Assembly (NCBI RefSeq): GCF_030867095.1 | Contig: NC_081829.1 | Location: 49,287,036 to 49,351,035 of the forward strand | Source of the DNA: Alligator mississippiensis | Taxonomy: Eukaryota > Chordata > Crocodylia > Alligatoridae | Direction: 5' to 3' | DNA length: 64,000 bases | Shown here: positions 6,846 to 51,300 of the stretch, one piece after another | Numbering within the stretch: position 1 is the stretch's first letter | Layout of the letters: each line of letters starts with the position of its first letter | Position numbers and translations under genes: made by a program | Notes under the pieces: model-generated | Seen by the model: only the letters and a program-made list of their open reading frames with translations | The model's database searches: none | What the model was told of the DNA's origin: nothing

Positions 6846-8147
6846 TTAATTGCCTGGTAAATTGGGTAGTGATAGATATACCCTGGTTTACCAGCTAATT
6901 GTCTCAGGGCCAAGAAACACCTCCTTTTACATGAGTAAACAGTATAAGGTACAGCCCATTGAGTGACCTTATTTAATTAGGTGCTTAATTAAGTTCCCAT
7001 GTAACAGGGGCAGCCATTGATGGGGCTGAGAGCGGGAGGAGGATGAGGGCTCATGGCACAGCTCCCCACACAGCACCTGGGGCTCTGCGCCACATCCAAA
7101 TTCTTCATACCACCTCCCAGAAAACACAATACATCCTGGGGTTGGCTCCTGCATCCCTGGATCAGGCCCTGCACCATCTCTGCATGAAAACCCAATGTGC
7201 TATCTGACCCACAAGGCTCCCCAAAGGTGCACAAATTTGGCAGCAGGGGAGTAGCAAGTATTGCTACTACTGCCCTGCTGCCACATTTTCAGATCCCTGG
7301 GAATCCCTGTGGGCTGGATGGCATGGCTCTCAGGTCAGCTTTGGCCAGCAGACCAGGGCTTGAGCAATCCCAGTCTATTCTATGGTGAATAGTTTGAATA
7401 TCTGCTGCCCTCTTCTATGAAACCATTTCATTTTGAAAGCCTGGGAAATGCAAAACTAGTCTGAAAGCAGTCCAGGTGTGCTCCCCACTTGAGTGTAGAA
7501 TAATCTGCCACCAACACATTGGTAGGTAGCAGTGGGAAAAATCATATTCATAAACACACATGGAGGGGTCTTTTTATCACTTTAATGACAAAATGATTTC
7601 CTAGAGGACCTGTGCTCACAGAAACCCAGATGCTGCCTGTTTGGGATAAAGCATATTTCACTTACCCTTGCACACTGGATAGGTGAAAGAGTGCATTAGA
7701 CCACAAAGAATCTGAGACAGCCCCTTACAAATGTCTGAGGCTGAGCCTGCTGCTAGTTGATCACACCTGCTGTGGTACTGCATCTATCCAATAGCAGATA
7801 AGCTCTTGTAGAATCAAGCATTGCTCCTATGAATGCTATTATTTGACTCAGTAACAGTGATTTTTCCTTCTTGATACTGGGTCTCAGGTGGATGAAAAAT
7901 CTTGGCATCAGGTGAAAGAAAACATTGACCTGCTCTGGTGATCTTCCTTAGATGAGCCAAACATCATGTTCTCAATTATCTGTATGCCTTGTTTCTCATA
8001 TGAGGCAAATTCTCAACTGCCAAGTCCTTGTTGAAAACATATGGAGCTCTTTGAAAATAAAAGGACAGAAGTTTGTCCCGATAGCTGGAATTTCCCATTT
8101 GGAATCTAAGGGTGCTTATACACAAGTGTGGAGGCTGATCCCAGGGG
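6845..8147. other. Intergenic DNA, nothing firm
   Basis: Apart from the small inverted MITE core near 7010-7050, no repeat or gene was recognised. Confidence 0.4.
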
Positions 8148-8290
8148 TGTAGGTTGTAGCCGTGTTGGTCTAAGGACCTAGGCAGACAAGATTCCTTGGG
8201 TGAATTTGATATCTTTTATTAGACCAACCCAAATAGTTGGAGAATGGTTATTAAGCAAGCTTTCGAGGTTCATCCCATGCACTGTAATTG
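8148..8290 (+). mobile_element. Penelope-like element tail
   Basis: The sequence GTAGCCGTGTTGGTCTAAGG, then ATCTTTTATTAGACCAACC, then AAGCAAGCTTTCGAGGTTC is the widespread reptilian Penelope-like terminal sequence, including its internal inverted pair (TTGGTCTAA / TTAGACCAA). It is a non-coding fragment. Family assignment is from recognition of the motif, not alignment. Confidence 0.6.
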
Positions 8291-8341
8291 CAGTGCGTTA
8301 GAGCAGACTTCATTAATCCATTAATCCATTAATCACTCAAG

Positions 8342-9827
8342 CACCCTGTCCTGGGGTTAGTGAGAAGTGGGACTGGGAAGCTGCGCCAGCGGGGCTTGGC
8401 ACAGAAAGAAACACTAAAATAAAGAAAGAAATGCAAAATAACCACTTATCTGCAGGAGCGATGCCAGAAGACAGAAGAGAAAAGCCCATGCGGTTTACAA
8501 GCTATGCCTTTATACAATTAAGGCCAGCAGGTGATGTCATAAAGACACACCAGCCGGCAGGGATAAAAGCGGCTGCCAGCAGTAGGGAGGAGAGAGCCAG
8601 TGAGGAGATGTATAAAGTGGTGGTGAGCCAGTGAGGAGATGCCAAGTGGCGGCCTGGTCAATTTGGCGAATGCAAAGAAGAAGTGAAAAACAACCTCAGG
8701 GAAGGGGAGGTCTTCCCACTTGAACGCCCCAGGTATCAGGTCAGGGAGCTGAGCTAAGGCCAGAAGGAAGAGAGGGACCCCGCAGGACCAGCATCAGGGG
8801 AGAACTGCCAAGTTCAGGCAGGAGGGCTAGGAAAGCCAACCGGTAGGATACCGGATAGGAAGACCCCTTTTGGTTCCTTTTTTCTTTATTTCCTTTTGTT
8901 CGTTTTATTTCTTTACCCCTGCTCGACAGGGGCACCCTTAAGGCCCAAGAAGAGATCCAACTGGCTCAAAGTGGATCTCAGGCCCAGAGTTTGGGCTGGC
9001 TAAGTATCCTTCCCCAAGGAGAAAAGGGGATACCACAGAGCACAAGGAACAGCCACACTGGAGTGGCAGCCGAGTCAATATCTGGCACCCTGCCGGAGGT
9101 TGGTGTAAGGCTGGGGTGTAGGGGAGGTGGAGCCCCACGAACATTCCGCAAGTGGATTGGTCATCCCTGAGGGGCGTTTAGAGGCTGAACCCCACACTGA
9201 TGTAACATTCAAAGACGTGGAAGGTGAATTTGGGGGAAGGCCAGTGGGACAACCGAAACCCACCTTGGGGAACCCACGAACCTAGAGAGTGTACACCTTC
9301 TGCTGTCCAGGCCAAGGCAGCCCATGACCGGGCATTCAAAGCCAGGCGGACACAAATTTGCCACACTACCACTTGGTGTCTTCCCCAATGAACTTCTTTA
9401 ATGACACAAGGGGGAACTCACCCCCAGTGTTCCACCCTTCCCGGGGCTCAATCACAGTGCCCATGGTTTGGGGAGCTTTCACTGCTTCCCCAGCCGCCCA
9501 ATGTCCGGGTGCTCCCTGTGCATGCTGGTTCCCCCCATTACCGGCACAGAGAGCCTCCGCCACCTCCCTGGCTCTCCCCTCCCTACTGCTGGCAGCCACT
9601 TTTATCCCTGGCAGCTGGTGCATCCTTATGATGTCACCCGCCGGCCTTAATTGCATAAAGGCGCAGCTTGTAAACCATGTGGGCTTTTCTCTTCTGTCTT
9701 CTGGCATTGCTCCTCCTGCAGGTAAGTGGTTATTTTGCATTTCTTTTTTATTTTAGTGTTTCTTCCCATGCTGAGCCCTGCGGGTGGGGCTTCCCAGTCC
9801 CGCTTCTCACTATCCCAGGACACACCC
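8342..9827. mobile_element. Palindromic element with LTR-like TG...CA ends and 5-bp target duplication
   Basis: The element at 8347-9822 (1476 bp) begins TGTCCTGGGG and ends CCCAGGACA. It is flanked by identical CACCC at 8342-8346 and 9823-9827. The outer about 258 bp on the left (8347-8604) reappears reverse-complemented at about 9565-9822; both arms carry a conserved open stretch reading MPEDRREKP. A GGATAAAAG TATA-like motif lies in the left arm near 8560. The centre (8605-9560) is not repeated and encodes nothing recognisable. It could be a TIR transposon of integrase type, or two LTRs of one family in opposite orientation. Confidence 0.75.
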
Positions 9828-9829
9828 TC

Positions 9830-10300
9830 ACACTCCAGCAGCCTTCTGCATCTTCTGTATCAGCTTCCCTGCACTTCAAAGTGGTCATGGGGATGCTTGA
9901 ACTAAAGTTCATCAAATGAGCTTAGTTCAAGCACCTCCACCGCCATCTTGAAGCACATCTTGAAGCACTGATACATGAGACACTGCGGTCAGGGTTCAAA
10001 TTACACCTAAGACTCTTGGGTGGTGGATGTCTGTGGCGGTGGCAGCTGGAAGGAGCTGCTACCACCACCACCTGGGCTGCTTAGGAAGGTGCAAGGTGGG
10101 CTGGCAGCTGATTGGCCTGCAGGGAGGTTCTTGTCTCTTATGTGGGGGCCCAGCCCCCACCCCCAAACTCCCCTGTAATTTGAACTCTCGCTGTGTTGCT
10201 TTAATTAAAGCAGCACTTGGGGCCACACTAATTAAAGCACCACCCCCTTACATCTCTGGACCATGTGCAAAAGTGCCCTCAGGTATTTTCTGTGTGCTGG
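9830..10300. repeat. Moderately repetitive block sharing a motif with an hAT element
   Basis: The stretch near 9900-9945 (a TTGAACTAAAG inverted pair around AGTTCAAGCACC) closely matches 54990-55035 inside the hAT element at 54346-55415. This marks it as a related repeat fragment. Ends were not found. Confidence 0.4.
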
Positions 10301-15175: not shown

Positions 15176-16145
15176 TAAGGCTGTGTGAGGCTTCAGACTG
15201 TGCTTCAGATCTGGAGAAGCTTCAGACGCTTCAGTGTCTGAAGCAGTATGTCCAAATCAAAGCACTGGCTTTTTTAGGCTTTCCAAAGCAGTTTGGAGCT
15301 TCTGAAGTGATTTGGAAAAGCTTCGGAGCCACTTTGGAGATCCAGCTGTAGGGTATAATGGGGAATCAATGAAATATCTATAACTTTGTTGTTTTTTTGT
15401 CTGATTTGGATTAAATTTGAGAGTTGGTAGCCTCTGCTGAGAGCACGAAGCCTGCCAAGTTTCAAGAAGATCAATGGAGGGGTTTGGGAGGAACTGCACC
15501 CCAAATTCTTGAAAGGAAACTCATGTCACATCCGTGTTACACCACAGGGGGGTGAAAACTGCAGGGGTGGTATCCCCTGGTGAGGCCATGAAGCCTGACA
15601 AGTTTCAAGGTGATAGGTGTAGGGGTTTGGGGGGAACTGCATCCCAAATTCTTGAAAGCAAAACTCATGTCACATGTATGTGTTACATCACAGGAGGGTG
15701 AAAACTGCAGGGGTTGTGACCCCTGGCGAGAGTATGAAGCCTGCCAAGTTTCAAGAAGATCGGTGCAGGGGTTTAGGGGGAACTGCACCTCAAGCTGCTG
15801 ACAGGCAAAACTCATGACATAGATGACCCTGGTGTGTTAAGGTGCAGTGGGCTGAAAACTGCAGGAGTGGTGGCCTCTGCTTAGGCCATGAAGCCTGCCA
15901 AGTTTCAAGGAGGTAAGTGCAGGGGTTTGGGGGAAATTGCACCTCAAGCTGTGGACAAACAAAACTCGTGACATGGGTGACACTGTGTGTGCTAAGGTGC
16001 AGCAGGGTGAAAGCTGCAGGGATGGTAGCCCCTGCTATGGCCATGAAGCCTGCCAGCTGTCAAGGAGATAGGTGCAGGGGGGTTCTGGGTCTCTGCACCT
16101 CTGGCTGCTGACAGGCAAAACTCGTGACATGTGTGCTTGTGCAAC
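15176..16145 (+). repeat. hAT-like MITE expanded into a 143-155-bp minisatellite
   Basis: The left end TAAGGCTGTGTGAGGCTTC belongs to the TAGGGCTGTGYGAA family of MITE ends. After a GGGTATAATGGGGAA motif come at least five tandem units. The recurrent AAGCCTGNCAAG motif sits at 15448, 15591, 15736, 15891 and 16045, a spacing of 143-155 bp. It interrupts the LINE reverse transcriptase at 15175. Antisense open frames simply follow the repeat. No right terminal repeat was found. Confidence 0.75.
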
Positions 16146-25889: not shown

Positions 25890-27870
25890 ACTGGCATTCA
25901 GTCCATCTGCATCTGGAGCTTGGGGAATGCCAGCAGTGGGAGGTTCAGCTTCTGGAACACCAGCTGCTGCACCACATCAGCATCCAAGCAGGTGCAGTGG
26001 GGTGTCACAACATCCCCAGCGATGCTGAACACCCTCTCACTCTGAACATTGTTCCTGGCCCAGGTGTTCCTGGGCAACTGTGGCCAAATCTGGCCACACC
26101 TGGCTGCGGCTTGCCCAGTAGGCCAAGGGGTCACACAGCAGCAGCTCCATGTCCTCAGCAAGATAGGCAGCCACCTATGTGGCAGCCACCTAGGTGCAGC
26201 CACCTATGTGGTATGAGTGCTACCTGCCTGATGCTGGGGTCTGGTGGCTCTGGACCCCACCATAGAAGCCATGCCCTTAGCCCATATTGGCAACACCTGT
26301 GGTGGAGGAGAAGACTGGCTCATGGATGGTGTGCTAGCATGAGACAGTGGATCGCCTTGTTCCACATCCCCCCACCTCCGCCATTCTGCCTCCATGACTT
26401 TCTTTACTAGCACCTCCATTCACTGATTCAGCATTTGGCCATAATGCCCTTCACCCTTGGGTCACACGTGATGGCCAGCATATGTACTATACTGAACCAC
26501 AAGGTTTCAAGACATTTCCTGATGCCCTCCTTCAGCCGCCTCACCAGTGCCTGCATGTCCGGTGAGTGGCTTGCCACAGCCAGGAACACTGATCCCCTGG
26601 AAGCTCTCCATTTGGCTCTGATGTTCCCTCACTACAGGGATCATCTGGCTAAGGAGGGCATTGGCAGCACTGAGGGTCTTGGTGCCCTCGAGGAAGGGCT
26701 TGAGGACCACCAAGATCTGGGAGATGTTATCTCACTCAGCTCTGTTCAGAGGGCCACTGATCCCAATCTCCCTGAGCAAGGCCATCTCATGGATGGCCTT
26801 CTGTTGCTCCACCAGCCTCTCGAGCATCAGGTAAGTGGAGTTCCACCAAGTCTCCACATACTGCATGATTTTGTGTTGTGGGATGTTCAGCTCTTTCTGT
26901 TTATCCCACAGCATCTTGCCCCCCTTGATGCTCCAGTGGAAGTAGCCTGCCACCTTCTTGCATTTTGAAGTTAGCTTGCTGGTGGTACTGGTGCCATCAC
27001 CAGCAGCCCTGCTGCCTCCAAGGTGATCCCTGACAACAAAGTGCAACTTGTGTGCTACACAGCGGATGCCAACGAACATGGCATCGCGGACCACCTTGAC
27101 CATATTGGCCCCATTGTCGATGACCATGAGCCCACGGGTCAGCTTGCCCTGCCCATGGGTGCACTCCCACTTTCCCACACTGTTCCAGGGTGGCCTGTCT
27201 CTGCTTTGTGGGGGACAAGGGCGTTGGAGTGAGCGGGGGACTTTCCTTTGGGCATGCTTCCATTAGTGCCAGGCTGAGAAGGAACAAGGGCAAGGAGGTG
27301 GTGCCTGTGGAGATGCATCAGTATCCCCGTGGTGCTCATATGTTTTTTTCCCTTGCCCCAGCTGGTTTTGACTTGGCAGTGCAGGCAGATAGCATACGTG
27401 GGATCGTCTGCCAGCTCAAAATGATCCCAGACCACACTACCCATTCGCTTCTGGGGTGTGGGTGCATCTGTGAATGCTGCTGCACTTTTCCTCTCCTCAG
27501 CAGGGAGAGGCACAGCAAAAGGAGGAGAAGACTCAGCTGTGCCGCTTGCCTCCACCTGTACATCAGCCTCCTCCGAAGTGCCTTCTGGGGAAGGAGGCCT
27601 GGCTCAAAGGGAAACTTGAGGGGTGTTGAGCACAAACTCAGGTGATCCCCCCTCCTTCCCCAGAATTTCCCTTGCTAGAGCACTCAGATCCAGATCCAGC
27701 ACCCATTCTTCTGGCACTGGAAGGCTCAGCATGGGAAGTGAAATAGGGGTGGAGTAGGCTGCTGTGCTGGTGCTGCTGGTTGTGGTTGTTGTTGTGGTGA
27801 GGGTCACAGGCAGTGGCAGTGGCACTGCTCCTTGATGCTTGTAGCAGCCTCATCCCTTTTAGCTGGAGGA
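25890..27870 (-). mobile_element. Autonomous hAT transposon remnant
   Basis: This covers a minus-strand transposase relic and its glutamine/threonine-rich 5' region (about 27640-27850). Terminal repeats and an 8-bp duplication were not found, so the limits are those of the coding remains. CR1 ends 360 bp to the left and a tandem array starts just to the right. Confidence 0.75.
25898..27555 (-). pseudogene. hAT transposase pseudogene (BED finger, core, dimerisation end)
   Basis: On the minus strand, in order: a BED zinc finger (VWDHFELADD, then C-x2-C in ICLHCQVK and a HLHRHH end) at about 27400-27500. Next comes a core with VIDNGANMVK, a CVAHKLHFVV motif and the TWWNSTYLMLERL segment (26732-27178). 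Then a stop and frameshift lead into ILVVLKPFLEGTKTL near 26700, and finally the hATC dimerisation segment NVQSERVFSIAG near 26010-26060. Several frameshifts separate the parts. Plus-strand frames at 25997-26410, 26435-26968 and 27190-27645 are antisense shadows. Confidence 0.88.
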
Positions 27871-28285
27871 AAGAGGCTCCATCTCAGTTTGGTGGGAGGC
27901 AGGGGGAATTTACAGCTCTCCCTCTACCCGCTCTCCACCTCTCCCTGAAGGTTGACCAGTGTGGCCACCTGCCTTTCCATCACGCTTCATGGTGAGTTTC
28001 ATGTCTTCCTTTTGTACAAATATATAAATGTATTTGCATTCCTATATAAATTTAAAAATGTAGGTGTGGTACAGTGAAGAAATTTATAAAACTGATGGAA
28101 ATACATCTTTCTCCCTATATAAATCTAATAGCATAGGTGTGGTGCAGTGAAGAAATGTATGAAAACCAATAGAAATATATCTGTGTCTGTATATAAATTC
28201 TATAGTGTAGATGTGGTGCAGTGAAGCAATGTATACAAATAGAAATGTCTTTCTTTCTATATAAATGAAAAAATGTAGGTGTGGT

Positions 28286-29207
28286 GCAGTTGTGGTGGTG
28301 AGATGCCCCCACAGGCTCTCGAGGGAGAGAGAGGAGAGCCCACGGACCCCAGACCCCGAGAGCAAGCCCCCAGAGGGGCGTACGTACCTTCAGGAGAACA
28401 GCAGGAGCAGGAGCCGCGTTCGCGGCCACAGCCATGCGAACCCGCATTACGCCGGCTGTGGCTTCAGCTGTTTTCGATAAGGGGAACAGCTGAGCCAATC
28501 CCAGCAGCCGTATCGGCCGCTGCGGGAGGATTAAAAAATGCCGGTGGAGCGGGGAGGGAAAGAGCCGGAGAGAGAGAGAGCACGGGCTGGCAGCTCGTGA
28601 GGCGAGCTCCGGCATGAGAAGGGGACGACCCAGCCTGCAAGGCTTCAGCAGGCAGCCCACGAAAGGGCTTTAAGCCTTCTGCTGGAGGCAGAGCAGGAGG
28701 CAGGCAAGGAGGGCAAGTGGAGGCACTCTTGCAGCCACTGACAGGAGCTTACACTCAGGAGGCAAGGGAGCTCCCTGCTGGTGGTAAGGGAGAGAAAACA
28801 GCAGAGAATCTGGGTGGGAGCTGGCATAAGAGGGATAACCCTGCAGCTCCTCCTGATTCGGAGGAAAATTTTCTATAAAAAAAAAGAGATCTTCCCCAAG
28901 ATGGAAGGGAGAGCGACCGGAACCCTGGGAACCAGTCCAAGGCCGTCGTACGAGGCCAGGAAACATCTGTAATGCATCATCCAGCGGCTGGCGTGTGGAC
29001 GGGGTGCAGGGGAGGCGAAGCCCTGTGGAACACCGTGTCGAACAACCGTGAGTACCATCGTCTATCGGGAGGCCCCATCCGTGCTAAGATCTCCACTGTA
29101 GACCCCTCTTAAAATGCGTTTAACATCCAAGTCGTGGCAGGCGAGTTGAGGGGAGGAGCAAGCCCCGATAGACTGGGAGGTGAGAGGAGCGCAAGCCCCA
29201 CAGAAGT
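28286..29207 (+). mobile_element. Solo LTR inserted in the tandem array
   Basis: The block at 28291-29202 (912 bp) starts TGTGGTGGTG and ends CCCCACA, interrupting the array mid-unit. Flanks are GCAGT (28286-28290) and GAAGT (29203-29207): a 5-bp duplication with one mismatch. It is GC-rich, unlike its surroundings. It has no internal genes, so it is a recombined single LTR of an endogenous retrovirus or gypsy-type element. Strand is not established. Confidence 0.75.
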
Positions 29208-29269: not shown

Positions 29270-30218
29270 TTTCATAGTTTCATAGTTTCTAGGGTTGGAA
29301 GGGACCTAAACAGATCATCAAGTCTGACCCCCTGCCCTGGGCAGGAATGAGTTCTGGGATCATAATACCCCAGCCAGATAACTATCCAACCTCCTCGTGT
29401 AAGACCCCCAAGGTAGGGGAGAGCACCACCTCCCTTGGGAACCCATTGCAGAGCCTGGCAGTCCTAACTGATATCAAGCCTGAACCTGCTGTCAATCAAT
29501 TTGTGGTCATTATTCATTGTTATCTCGGGTGGTGCCGAGGGGAACAGAGCCTCACCTATTTTCTGCTCATCCCACCTGGTGAGTTTATAGTTGGCCACCA
29601 GATCCCCTCTCTCAGTCTTCTCTTGTGGAGGCTGAATAGATTCAGTATTGGGAGCATTTGCATTTAGTCTATCTTTGTAGGGCCTGGCCTGCTGCCCCCT
29701 GACCATGTGAGTGGCCCTCCTCTGGACCCTCTCAAGGCTAGCCACTTCCCTCTTGAACTGCGGCGCCCAGAACTGGACACAGTACTCCAACTGCAACTTG
29801 ACCAGTGCCACATAAAGGGGAAGGATCACCTCCCTGGACCTGCTTGTGATGCATCTGTAGATGCATGACAAGGTGCAGTTAGCCTTTCTGATCGCTTCCT
29901 CGCTTTAGCAGCTCATGTCCATCCTGGAGCCAACAATGACTCCAAGATCCCTTTCAGTCACTGTGTTGTTGAGAAGGGTGTTACCCAGCCTATAAGTATA
30001 TTGCAGGTTCCTTCTCCCTCGATGCAGCACCTTGCACTTGTCTGTGTTGAATTCCATTCTATTCTCATCCATCCTCCTCTGTAACCTGTCTAGATGTAGT
30101 TGGATTCTGTCCCTCCCCTCCAGTGTGCCCACTTTTCCCCACATCTTTGTGTCATCAGCGATTTTGGACGGCGTGCTTTCCATGCCTGCCTCCAAATTGC
30201 TGATAAAGATGTTGAATA
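29270..30218 (-). mobile_element. 5'-truncated CR1 in the tandem array
   Basis: The minus-strand copy has its 3' end at 29270 (TTTCATAG repeats, then GGTTGGAAGGGACC). It extends upstream through the reverse transcriptase C-terminal region: SREVILPLYVALVKLQLEYCVQFWAPQ is recognisable in parts around 29700-29830, and FNTDKCKVLHRGRRNLQ near 30010-30060. It stops at 30218 at the array. It carries stops and frameshifts. Confidence 0.9.
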
Positions 30219-30744
30219 GTGAAAGTGTGGTGCAATGAAGAAATGTATGAAAACCAATAGAAATATATCTGTCTCTATATATAAATACATTAGTGTAGGT
30301 GTGGTGCAGTGCAGAAATGTATACAAACAAATAGAAATAGGTCTTTCTCCCTATATAAATTAAAAAATGTAGGTGTGGTGCAGTGAAGACATTTGTGAAA
30401 CTGATAGTAATATATTTTTCTCCCTATATGAATTCAATAGTGTAGGTGTGGTACAGTGAAGAAATGTATGAAAACCAATAGAAATATATCTGTCTCTGTA
30501 TATAAATTCAAAAATGTAGGTGTGGTGTAGTGAAGAAATGTATGAAACCAATAGAAATATATCTTTCTCCCTATATAAATTCTATAGCGTATGTGTGGTA
30601 TAAAGAATGAATGTATAAAAACAAATATAAATATATCTTTCTTCCTATATAAAAGCTATAATGTATGATGTATGGTATGCTGCAAAGCTTTAAATGTATA
30701 GAAATAAAATAGAAATGTATTTCCCTTCCTATATAAATAAAATT

Positions 30745-46734: not shown

Positions 46735-47586
46735 GTAAGTGGTGCTCGCTGCAGCGGGGGAAGGCGACGCGCCTGCTGCAATCTGGGCGTGCGTTTGCCA
46801 ATGCAGGGAAGCGTGCGGGGCAGATGGACGGAGCCCGCAGCCCTGGCACAACTAGGGCCAGGCCGCCTGCCCTGCTGAATGGGGCTGTGCTGAGACAGGC
46901 ACCGGCGGGCTGGACCTCGGCCAAGCCTGTGCAGAAATAGTGACCTTGTCTCGCTGAGCCCGGCGTGCCCTCTGCCTGACTGCTGACCCCCTGTGTACAC
47001 CCCACCTTTGTCTCCTCAAGCCTGCCAGGGTACGAAACTCCCAGCCCAGTCCTGGCACCTCTCTGCATCCCGATCTATACACATCAGTAGGAAATTTTGC
47101 ATCTGTTGTCTTGCATGAAAGGGTTAGGTCTTCTTGCTTGCTGCTCCACATAACTAATGCAGCCATCTCCCTGGCCTTGATCTGTCAGAAACAGGAATAA
47201 CAAATGAATGTCAGAAAAAAAGCATAGTAAGATATTAATTTCTGAGTGCACAGCACTACAAACTAAACCTTTCACATCACTTTCTTGTACAGTCTGCTAA
47301 ACAAGTTCTTTAGGGTCGTGCTTCAGCTTCTCTAGTGAGCATATAGCAACTTCCCTAGTTTTGCAATAACAAAAAATCTTTGTAACTATTTTGTTGTGTC
47401 ACTTTGGGATGAGACGTCTCTGGTTGCTTTTCCCAGAAGCAGGCTTGAAAATTAGTTTAAAGGCTTGTTCAGGGTTTCCCTCCATGGATTGTATTAGTGG
47501 AATATGTGCACTTATTTTTTTTCATTAAGAGATAAGGGCTTCTTTTAAAACAACCTTCAAATGAATCCATCTTTTCTTTCTTACAG
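46735..47586 (+). other. ZNF365: ZNF365 intron 1
   Basis: The intron starts GTAAGT at 46735 and ends with a pyrimidine tract (CTTTTCTTTCTTACAG) at 47571-47586. It is 852 bp long and falls from GC-rich to AT-rich. No repeat was recognised inside it. Small open frames on either strand match nothing known to me. Confidence 0.7.
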
Positions 47587-47599
47587 GAATCTAAGAGTA

Positions 47600-48330
47600 A
47601 TGCAACAGAACACTTTTGAAGAAAGCAGATATTCCTGGCAAGAATCTTTTGAAAATGTCGGTATCTGTATGCCATTTCGTTGCCCACGGTGTGGTGACCA
47701 CACCAGATTCAGAAGCCTGTCTTCTCTGAGGGCACATCTGGAGTATAATCATAGTTACGAGGACAGAAGTCTTTTGACAAAATGCAACCTACTCTCCTCC
47801 CTCAAAGATGCAGATTTGCTTTCTTCCTCAGAGACCTCAACTCAAGGAAAACTGGGGAAAGCCAGCAATGCAATAAAACAAAAACCAGCCTACATAAATT
47901 TTTGTGATGCATCACATGAGAACACAAAAAATAGAAAATTGCTGGAGGTGGAAGCTGAAAGGCCTGTCTCTTTTGTCGCAAGTTACATGCCAGCAAACTC
48001 CCCTGATGAGCAAATTTCTAAACCCGGGATTCCCACAACAGACTCAAAAGCACCTTTTGAGGCACATGTAAGAGAAAAGTTTAATATGATGGTGGAAGCT
48101 GTAGATAAAACAATAGAGAAGAGAATTGACAGGCTTACCAAAGAGTTGGCCCAAAAAACTGCTGAACTGCTGGAAGTTCGGGCAGCTTTTGTGCAGCTGT
48201 CTCAGAAGAAACAGGAAGTTCAAAGGCGAGAGAGGGCCTTGAACAGACAGGTAGATGTTGCAGTTGAGATGATTGCAGTGCTGAAACGACGTCTCACAGA
48301 GTCCGAGGAAGAACTTCACAGGAAAGAAGA
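47600..48330 (+). CDS. ZNF365: ZNF365, first coding exon (residues 1-243)
   Basis: The exon runs from the AG acceptor at 47585-47586 to a GTAAGT donor at 48331, and ends two bases into a codon. The chosen ATG at 47600 starts MQQNTFEESRYSWQES, very close to the start of mammalian ZNF365; the upstream in-frame ATG at 47561 lies in the intron. Residues 28-51 form a C2H2 finger (C28, C31, H46, H51). Residues 154-244 form a long charged coiled coil that is almost unchanged from mammals. The middle (about 55-150) is less conserved. In mammals ZNF365 (DBZ/Su48) acts at the centrosome and in neural differentiation with DISC1 and NDE1, and supports replication-stress recovery and telomere stability. 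The remaining exons are not in this window. Confidence 0.95.
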
Positions 48331-51300
48331 GTAAGTAGAAAGGCAAAAGAAGCAGTGTTAATGGCTTTGTATGTGCTTGGAGAACAGATGTAATATAAGA
48401 AAATATCTAGATGGAAAAAATATTTACGGGTAATGCTACTTTACTGGTTATGAAAGAATGTAAATGAGGGTGGGTCTGGTGTTTCTTGAGTTGTAAGCAA
48501 CCTGATGCTTCTATTGACAGAAAAGTGCATTCTTCAGCAAAATGGGTTTCCTATTAGAAAGCAGTGCTTTTTGGTCACAAGAACCCTTCTGTCAGTACTA
48601 CATTACAGTGCTAGCTTAGGAAGCACCTCAAGAAATACTACCCTCAGTAACATCAGCATAATGTGAATGACTACAGTGGGATGGCACGGGTATAAATGAT
48701 ATTAATAACTGACTGAACCTGAGGCTATAGCTACAACTTGCAATGTAGTATGTACTGATACCCAAGCTGGGTAATGAAATATCATCCTGGTAAATCAGTC
48801 CTGTGGATTGTTGCACTACCATGGCTATTACTACTTCTGGTACCAGAGCTAGGTCAAGTCGGAGTTAGCTTGACTATCTCCTACGTGCCACTACATTGTG
48901 TGGTGTGGACATCCTCTAACTGATATGTTCTAGCACATAACATTTTAAAAAATATGGGTTTAATAGGTGATAGGTGGAAATCCTCTTAAACCTGTTGAAT
49001 ACTATTCTCTGAGTAGTCCTACTGAAGACAGTGGGCCTATTTTTTGGAGGAAGATACTGTCAGTGTGAGCATTATCATTTGCCTCTGTCCAAGGGCCAAA
49101 TCATGCCCTGTGTTGTCCTACAGTAGAATTTTGCAGCAAGGCAGCGTTATAAGGTAGTGCTCAATAGAACCCATATAGAAAGATTTTATTGGGAATTGGA
49201 TCCATAAAAACAGATCTGTTTATTACTAGAACCAGAAGCATATTCTACACTCATTTTTACAAGCCCAGTCCTTCTAAAAATATCTTCATGATGCATCTAT
49301 AAATAATGTACCAGGTTACTACATTTTTAATGTTTGAACTAATTCCTTTTATTTAGCATTCTCCGAAACATTTTCGGGCAGTTTGGAGTAACAACATTAT
49401 TTTTAGGAAAATGCATATTTTTGATAATATAATGTGATTTCATTAGCTTAAAAATAAATTGTGTTGAACACCAGCGGACATACCAGTAAAAGACATAAGA
49501 TCTCAAACAAGGGAGTTGGTGTGGGAGCTAGTATTCCCTAGCCTAAAAAAGAAGGGATGAAAATCCCCCAAACTCCCTCCTACAAAGAGAGCATGATGAT
49601 AACTCCTGGTGCAACGTTACAAGAGTAATGGAGTAAGAGATCACAGAAGTGACTGGATACATAAGTTATGGGATGTATATTATCCTTGAGGGGTTCTTCA
49701 TGGAATTTCTATCTGATATTTCCCCTGAAAGAGCTATGGAAGACAAGAGTTGAGGACTAAAGATGTAGCTGAATATGTTGGTAGAGTTCAGACAGTATCT
49801 GAAAACATGATGATGGTAGGAAGATGAAGGTACCTTAAATGTTCAAGGATTACAGACCACTACTAAACAAGGAGATCTGGAGCAACAGATGGCCCACAGA
49901 AGAATGCGTCCACAAGTATAAGACGGAGAAGACACCGTCTAGTGGAACAGAAACACAGTTGAGCAACTGCTCTCTAATTTCTGCTAAAGAGAGGAGAGAC
50001 TGGATTCCAAGGAAGAGGAAGATCCTATATAGGGGACTGCTAAAAAGAACGGAAAGCAAGATGAACTGCTTACAGAAGAATGAAAAGCCTGAGGCTCACA
50101 CCTGAGCCTGAGGTCTGTTTGATCAGGAACTTGTGACTAAGATGAATTGTCAAGCCTGTCACCAGAAATGAAACAATGTGCTGTCCTCTGGGAGCACCCA
50201 AGATGTAAAGGGTCCAGCTGGAAGTAGGGAAAAGTCTGCTTCATGATATCAGAAATGGCAGTGCCAGATTCTTGCTGACCTGGAAAAAGATACTCAAAGA
50301 AACGAAGGCTTAGAAAATCTTTAGTGAAATTTGTTGGATAAATGAAGGAAGGACAAGATAATGGGAACTGAGATTTGGTGCTGAAAGGAAAGCTTTGAAA
50401 TTCCTTACCACAAGGAAGCATTCTTAGAAAGAGGACTCTTCCTAATGGACTGATTTCCCCTGAGTTATTGGGGTGCGTACCTGATGAATGTTTGAGAACC
50501 TTAGATATACAAATCTTCCACTCTTTTTTTTTTTTTTTTTAATATTGAAGGAATTGATGATTCTAAATGTGGTGCCACCCTGTCAACCAATTCATGAAAG
50601 ATGGCAACAATTTCTGACGGGAAAAGAAGCAGAAGACACTCTCTCATTTTGATCTGGAGAAGTGAGGACATCCACAGTAGATTCATTTAATTGTGATCTT
50701 CCTTTTGTGTCAGCAACTACTATTGAAGATTTGCCTCCTTCATAATAGATCAATCCAGAAATACAACACAAGGAGCCAAGGGAAATTGAGGCTGACTAGA
50801 ATATTGTGTTCAACATGGGTTCAGGTAGAAATGAACAGACCAATAGAACCAACTCCGCCAGAGAGCAATTGATCTGTCCATCCAAGATCCATCGTCAGAT
50901 CCACCTCTTAAGCTTAGCCAAAAGGAAGAAATTGTTAAAGATTCCAAATGCCTTTCCAAGCAGGATTCATCAGTTGGAACTCACAAAAGAAGTGAAATTG
51001 TTAATCACTGAATGATTATGTATACTGCACACAGCAATGTTCAGTAGAGATACACCATCTAGCTTTAAATGAGCTAGCTTGACTAGATTGGGATCAGTCT
51101 AGCCATGGTATCATTAAGTCTGTGGGAGCTAATTTCCCATCTCTTAAACAACACTGATGGTCCTGTGTCCCTAAATTTCCCTGCTTTCTTGATGGAGTAA
51201 GCTAGCCTGTGTGGAATTCCATATAGCCGTAGCTAGACTGCTTCTGGCATCTGAACCAATGTGGGTATTTGACAGTACATTGCAGCCTTGCAGTCTACAT

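What the first reader, a model, noticed from the sequence alone, without database searches (positions are those of the whole stretch)
8342..9827. Palindromic TG...CA element with a perfect 5-bp duplication
Both ends start TGTCCTGGG when read inward, arms of about 258 bp are inverted copies, and CACCC flanks the whole on both sides in direct orientation. The duplication shows the palindrome was inserted as one unit, so it is not two chance LTRs. LTR-type termini combined with inverted rather than direct terminal repeats do not fit ordinary LTR elements or common DNA transposons here.
Basis: partly seen in the sequence, partly recalled or inferred. Interest (0 to 1): 0.72.

Follow-up and report, generated by a model that had tools for sequence, protein, structure and literature searches.

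The report
One-off inverted pair of retrotransposon LTRs
The palindrome is not a new kind of transposon but a single scrambled copy of an ordinary Gypsy-type retrotransposon end (LTR) joined to an upside-down piece of a second LTR, with one target duplication around the pair; it may be a fossil of a retrotransposon copy that integrated the wrong way.

Summary
In detail: 8347-9822 has inverted TGTCCTGGG ends, 259/260-bp arms 86% alike, and CACCC on both outer sides. The host genome (2.35 Gb) shows what it is. The arms are the 5' part of a ~1.16-kb LTR: in 37 of the 39 other scored places the same two parts form one ordinary colinear LTR, and the other 2 hold only part of it. Of 18 copies measured, 15 have 5-bp target duplications with at most one mismatch, against 3 of 306 control pairs. 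A proviral copy carries SCAN-type gag, integrase, then reverse transcriptase: Gmr1-like Ty3/Gypsy. The window unit is a whole LTR (8347-9354, internally deleted) whose terminal CA abuts an inverted 468-bp LTR fragment (9355-9822). Of 28 candidates scored, only the window carries that junction, so it shows no sign of having spread. The duplication surrounds the pair, and nine unoccupied copies of the target repeat align across the site. I favour integration of a chimeric reverse transcript with two U3-type ends; nested insertion plus an exactly placed microhomology deletion remains open. Low to moderate interest.

The parts
8342..8346 (.). Left copy of the 5-bp target duplication CACCC
   Evidence: exact match to 9823-9827
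8347..9354 (+). LTR A: complete LTR of the ~1.16-kb family from TGTCC to terminal CA, with an internal deletion
   Evidence: Matches LTR reference (copy L007) 1-264 and 449-1157 at 86-87%; terminal CA set by comparing letters with the other copies
8608..8641 (+). About 34 bp of filler at the place of LTR A's ~184-bp internal deletion, holding the second copy of a 17-mer (8594-8610, 8625-8641)
   Evidence: L010 has a similar deletion with different borders
9354..9355 (.). Junction: terminal CA of LTR A directly abuts LTR B at LTR position ~470
   Evidence: letters; of 28 candidates, all scored, only the window carries it; the other 27 reach at most 6 bases past it
9355..9822 (-). LTR B: inverted 5' fragment (LTR positions 470 to 1) of a second LTR, without LTR A's deletion
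   Evidence: 86% to LTR reference 1-470; alignment
9823..9827 (.). Right copy of the 5-bp target duplication CACCC
8287..8341 (.). Left flank: part of an older dispersed repeat that was the target
   Evidence: Eight places align through the joined flanks, starting at flank positions that correspond to window 8264-8287; nine rows aligned
9828..9921 (.). Right flank: rest of the target repeat

Best explanation
A one-off rearranged copy of a Gmr1-like Ty3/Gypsy LTR retrotransposon, not a transposon family with terminal inverted repeats. Shown: LTR A is complete, its terminal CA abuts an inverted 5' fragment of another LTR, and one 5-bp duplication surrounds the pair. Inferred: the activated CA end of one cDNA was joined by integrase to an internal site (position ~470) of an LTR on another, or the same, cDNA, as in autointegration. 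This made a molecule with two U3-type TGT ends, which integrase inserted at CACCC inside an older repeat; the interior was later lost by ordinary LTR-LTR recombination, and LTR A suffered a further internal deletion. The number below is for this mechanism; for the identity as a rearranged LTR derivative I would say 0.97.
For: The arms are LTR 5' ends: 37 of 39 other scored places hold the two parts as one colinear LTR; 5-bp duplications with at most one mismatch in 15 of 18 copies, 3 of 306 controls; a provirus with SCAN gag, zinc knuckle, integrase and RT in that order. The join starts directly at the LTR's terminal CA, the end that integrase uses. LTR A lacks a duplication of its own while the outer CACCC copies match exactly. 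Nine unoccupied target copies align across the site. LTR B does not look older than LTR A: mean divergence from 12 family copies A 0.139 (positions 471-1157; family 0.132-0.159), B 0.147 (positions 1-470; family 0.134-0.184), and at positions 1-262 A 0.154, B 0.128. [quoted passage not shown]
Against: Those passages call autointegration products nonproductive circles; I found no paper showing one integrated. Integration of two U3 ends is assumed, not shown. LTR A and B are not sisters in the tree, which is poorly resolved (1 of 17 inner branches starred), so they need not come from one molecule. The letters CACCC are not conserved in the nine target copies, and a short repeat upstream makes their length comparison uncertain by a few bases.
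Confidence: 0.55

Rival explanations
1. Nested insertion, then deletion: LTR B inserted first, inverted, with CACCC duplications; LTR A inserted into it in the opposite orientation at LTR position ~470; a deletion from B's left terminus to A's left terminus (both TGT, 3 bp of microhomology) removed the left part of B and A's own left duplication.
For: Needs only common processes; the join CA|internal LTR site is what a nested insertion leaves. A tree does not join A and B, as expected for separate insertions.
Against: The deletion must fall exactly on two element borders; I judge this rare but did not compute it. B is not visibly older than A, though a short burst would hide the difference. 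No remnant of B's left part lies within 3 kb or elsewhere in the window.
Confidence: 0.3
2. Another later rearrangement at the locus (inversion, gene conversion or break repair between LTR copies) or an assembly error made the inverted fragment.
For: Opposed LTR copies are unstable; LTR A already carries a deletion with filler. Only one assembly was available.
Against: Such events would have to keep both outer termini and the duplication exact.
Confidence: 0.1
3. A transposon family with terminal inverted repeats (Ginger-like or new), moving as this unit.
For: TGT ends, short duplications and TIRs of 40-270 bp occur in Ginger elements (passages of PMC2836005).
Against: No second copy of the layout among 40 scored places or of the centre among 28; ends TGTCC, not TGTNR; no match of weight in Pfam for typed pieces from five of the six frames (frame -3 was not scanned and frame +2 only in part); the arms belong to a retrotransposon's LTR.
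Confidence: 0.02

Closest known systems
Gmr1-like Ty3/Gypsy LTR retrotransposons of vertebrates (solo LTRs and proviruses)
   Same: Both parts of the unit are LTR sequence of this family; TG...CA ends and 5-bp duplications; family provirus with SCAN gag and integrase before RT.
   Different: Ordinary copies have one LTR or two direct LTRs; here one whole LTR is followed directly by an inverted LTR fragment, and one duplication surrounds both.
Autointegration products of retroviruses and Ty1 (inversion and deletion circles; PMC2644782 passages)
   Same: A CA end joined to an internal site of the element in inverted sense.
   Different: Those are described as nonproductive circles; this unit is in a chromosome with a target duplication and two U3-type ends.
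Ginger1 and Ginger2/Tdd DNA transposons (PMC2836005 passages)
   Same: Inverted ends beginning TGT, short duplications; that paper suggests Ginger1 TIRs arose from two LTRs in opposite orientation.
   Different: TGTCC instead of TGTNR, CACCC instead of CCGG/CCGT, no transposase seen, single copy.

Membership tests
Gmr1-like Ty3/Gypsy LTR retrotransposon (source of both parts) | LTR with TG...CA ends in multiple copies | tested here: met
   Of 18 copies, 17 start TG, 16 end CA, 15 do both
Gmr1-like Ty3/Gypsy LTR retrotransposon (source of both parts) | Short target duplication of fixed length | tested here: met
   5 bp in 15 of 18 copies with at most one mismatch (7 exact) against 3 of 306 control pairs (0 exact)
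Gmr1-like Ty3/Gypsy LTR retrotransposon (source of both parts) | SCAN-type gag in the family's provirus | tested here: met
   Pfam SCAN E 4.9e-15 in a piece of L020; SCAN is derived from Gmr1-like gag (PMC3424704 passage)
Gmr1-like Ty3/Gypsy LTR retrotransposon (source of both parts) | Integrase before reverse transcriptase | tested here: met
   Sense order in L020: integrase pieces (C-terminal domain E 2.5e-8; zinc-binding 0.0028, below cut-off), then RVT_1 (1.9e-5, below cut-off). That this order marks Gmr1 is recalled; a matching reference title is
Gmr1-like Ty3/Gypsy LTR retrotransposon (source of both parts) | Placement in a tree of reverse transcriptases | not tested
   Not done
Ordinary solo LTR (the window unit itself) | One LTR with a duplication directly at its two ends | tested here: not met
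   LTR A has CACCC before and AATTT after it; the second CACCC lies beyond LTR B
Ginger DNA transposon | TGTNR termini | tested here: not met
   TGTCC; definition from passages of PMC2836005
Ginger DNA transposon | CCGG/CCGT (Ginger1) or AT-rich (Ginger2) target | tested here: not met
   CACCC (definition)
Ginger DNA transposon | Multiple copies of the TIR unit | tested here: not met
   Junction seen once among 28 scored candidates; no other inverted layout among 40 scored places
Integrated autointegration-type product | Terminal CA joined directly to an internal LTR site in inverted sense | tested here: met
   a nested insertion would meet it too
Integrated autointegration-type product | Both parts arrived in one event | tested here: inconclusive
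   Divergences of A and B do not differ from the family's; no orthologous locus was available

The most novel reading that the evidence does not exclude
A germline fossil of an LTR retrotransposon cDNA that attacked another cDNA through its CA end and then integrated into the chromosome by two U3-type ends, making in one event the opposed-LTR layout once proposed as a first step from LTR retrotransposons to Ginger-type DNA transposons.
Probability: 0.5. Interest if true: 0.42.

Novelty: new variant of a known kind. Interest (0 to 1): 0.28.

Why it matters
If the one-event reading holds, it is natural evidence that a Gypsy-type integrase can insert DNA with two U3-type ends, and that autointegration-like chimeras are not always dead ends. 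It would also be a real example of the two opposed LTRs that the Ginger paper suggested as the origin of Ginger1 inverted repeats (passage). If the nested reading holds, it is a warning that an LTR pair trimmed by a microhomology deletion can mimic a TIR transposon with a perfect duplication.

Tried and rejected
Ginger or another TIR transposon family: rejected on terminus letters, single copy and LTR homology. Coding remnants in the element (a KRAB-like string and an integrase-C-terminus-like string seen in translation): six typed pieces, from five of the six frames (frame -3 not scanned, frame +2 only in part), gave one Pfam match among six, E 2.6; not used as evidence. A signal-peptide-plus-splice-donor look on one strand of the right arm: judged chance, because the start codon is not at the same place in the two arms. 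RNA families: no Rfam match at gathering score in the window. Relatives outside the host: none in IMG/VR by two exact patterns, GTDB contigs by one, plasmids or phages by blastn. Age difference between LTR A and B: none clear. B is lower than all 12 family copies at positions 1-262 (0.128) but has the highest transversion rate at 263-470 (0.043); A has the highest transversion rate at 471-1157 (0.039). A shared deletion between LTR A and L010: borders differ, taken as independent.

Literature on inverted-LTR or palindromic insertions: one search held 0 papers, two, none, two, forty (20 listed). No title or start of abstract in these listings describes such an insertion; of them I opened only PMC2644782 (passages). 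The library lacks most subscription papers, so I do not claim it is unreported. One search used a mistyped 20-mer and is void.

Not completed: the genome searches for LTR A's deletion junction (window 8540-8720) and for one arm alone (8347-8606) did not complete.

Full report
What is there. Positions 8347-9822 (1476 bp) have inverted ends TGTCCTGGG; the outer 259 and 260 bp align at 86% identity (E 6e-85), and CACCC stands on both outer sides in direct orientation. At this spacing two random places in the window share a 5-mer in 293 of 200,000 draws. No other copy lies in the window; nothing similar was found in plasmids or phages by blastn, or by exact patterns in IMG/VR and GTDB contigs.

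The host genome. The window is G000:C6:49287036-49351035 in a 2.35-Gb assembly. A search with the whole element scored 40 of 575 candidate places. In 37 of the 39 others, query ~300-1008 and query ~1014-1481 lie side by side on opposite strands, that is, as one colinear sequence beginning at the TGTCC end. The other two (C11:16894238 and C4:107245878) hold only part of it. None of the 39 has the window's layout. Compared with copy L007, five of seven other loci share one unit of about 1.16 kb end to end and nothing outside it; the remaining two are the window copy and the internally deleted L002. Twenty larger cuts, the window's place included, agree.

The unit is an LTR. Of 18 copies whose borders were set by alignment, 17 start TG, 16 end CA and 15 do both; 15 have 5-bp duplications with at most one mismatch (7 exact), against 3 of 306 mismatched left-right pairs (0 exact). 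These are 18 of the 39 other scored places; the window copy and the proviral L020 were left out, and 19 further places could not be fetched. The three misses are L017, L024 and L025; L024 is proviral, so a mismatch is expected there. L020 has two LTRs in the same orientation, one of them interrupted, around about 3.75 kb; L024 shares that interior at about 81% identity. Nine separate stop-to-stop pieces of L020 were scanned; five match, in sense order: SCAN (E 4.9e-15), zinc knuckle (7.4e-5), integrase zinc-binding (0.0028, below cut-off), integrase C-terminus (2.5e-8), reverse transcriptase (1.9e-5, below cut-off). SCAN derives from the gag of a Gmr1-like Gypsy element (passage of PMC3424704) and occurs in over half of frog Gmr elements (passage of PMC4131045). 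Integrase before reverse transcriptase as a mark of Gmr1 is recalled; a matching reference title appears. After the LTR in L020 and L024 comes a stretch starting TGGTGCATTGGCC, which I recall as the complement of a tRNA-Gly 3' end; not tested.

Anatomy of the window copy. LTR A, 8347-9354, runs from TGTCC to CA but lacks LTR positions ~265-448; in their place are about 34 bp that hold the second copy of a 17-mer. At its terminal CA it meets, without extra bases, an inverted 5' fragment of another LTR, positions 470 to 1 (9355-9822), which does not have LTR A's deletion. LTR A's flanks are CACCC and AATTT, so it has no duplication of its own; CACCC recurs only beyond LTR B. A 131-bp query over the join gave 28 candidates, all scored: only the window carries the join, and the other 27 matches stop or start near it, reaching at most 6 bases past it.

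The target. The flanks belong to an older dispersed repeat. With the flanks joined, eight places align through the join (40 of 1419 candidates scored). These eight and L018:5970-6160 align without a gap at the join (columns 89-128). The letters CACCC are not conserved there, and the window has four extra bases about 25 bp upstream, where an ATTAATCC repeat lies; two of the nine rows have further gaps there. So this shows an unoccupied target of about the right length, not the exact five letters.

How it arose. Two readings give the same final letters. In the first, the activated CA end of one cDNA was joined to position ~470 of an LTR on another cDNA, as in autointegration (reaction described in passages of PMC2644782). 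The product had two U3-type ends, which integrase placed at CACCC; LTR-LTR recombination then removed the interior. In the second, LTR A inserted into an older inverted LTR B, and a deletion between two TGT triplets removed exactly the left part of B. The second needs a deletion exact at two borders, which I judge rare but did not compute. Divergences do not show B to be older: A 0.139 at positions 471-1157 (12 family copies 0.132-0.159), B 0.147 at 1-470 (0.134-0.184; L010 covers only part), and at 1-262 A 0.154 and B 0.128 (0.130-0.182). Transversions point to neither: B is highest at 263-470, A at 471-1157. The tree does not join A with B but is poorly resolved.

Verdict. It is a single rearranged LTR derivative. 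Its interest lies in being a possible fossil of an integrated autointegration-type product and an example of the opposed-LTR layout once suggested for the origin of Ginger1 inverted repeats. The host looks like a vertebrate with CR1-like LINEs, to my recollection crocodilian-like; this was not tested.

Noticed in passing
window 28041-28290 and 30215-30653: Tandem arrays of a similar 74-bp unit at two places about 2 kb apart.
   Followed up: no
window 15425-16130: Tandem array with units of about 146-154 bp.
   Followed up: no
window 9874-9953; L018:5704-5838: A short inverted repeat (32-nt arms) in the right flank, related to stretches in L018 on both strands; part of the dispersed repeat that was the insertion target.
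   Followed up: partly
L020:6445-7119, minus strand: In this provirus an open frame runs from inside the 5' LTR (which ends near 6910) on into the gag region without a stop.
   Followed up: no
L020:7778-8847 and L018:4043-4427: Two LTR copies are interrupted by unrelated stretches of about 1.07 kb and 0.39 kb.
   Followed up: no
window 47549-48334: Open frame that by recollection looks like a zinc-finger/coiled-coil gene exon (ZNF365-like); not tested.
   Followed up: no
window 26732-27603, minus strand: Open frames that by recollection look like a hAT-type transposase with a BED-like finger; not tested.
   Followed up: no
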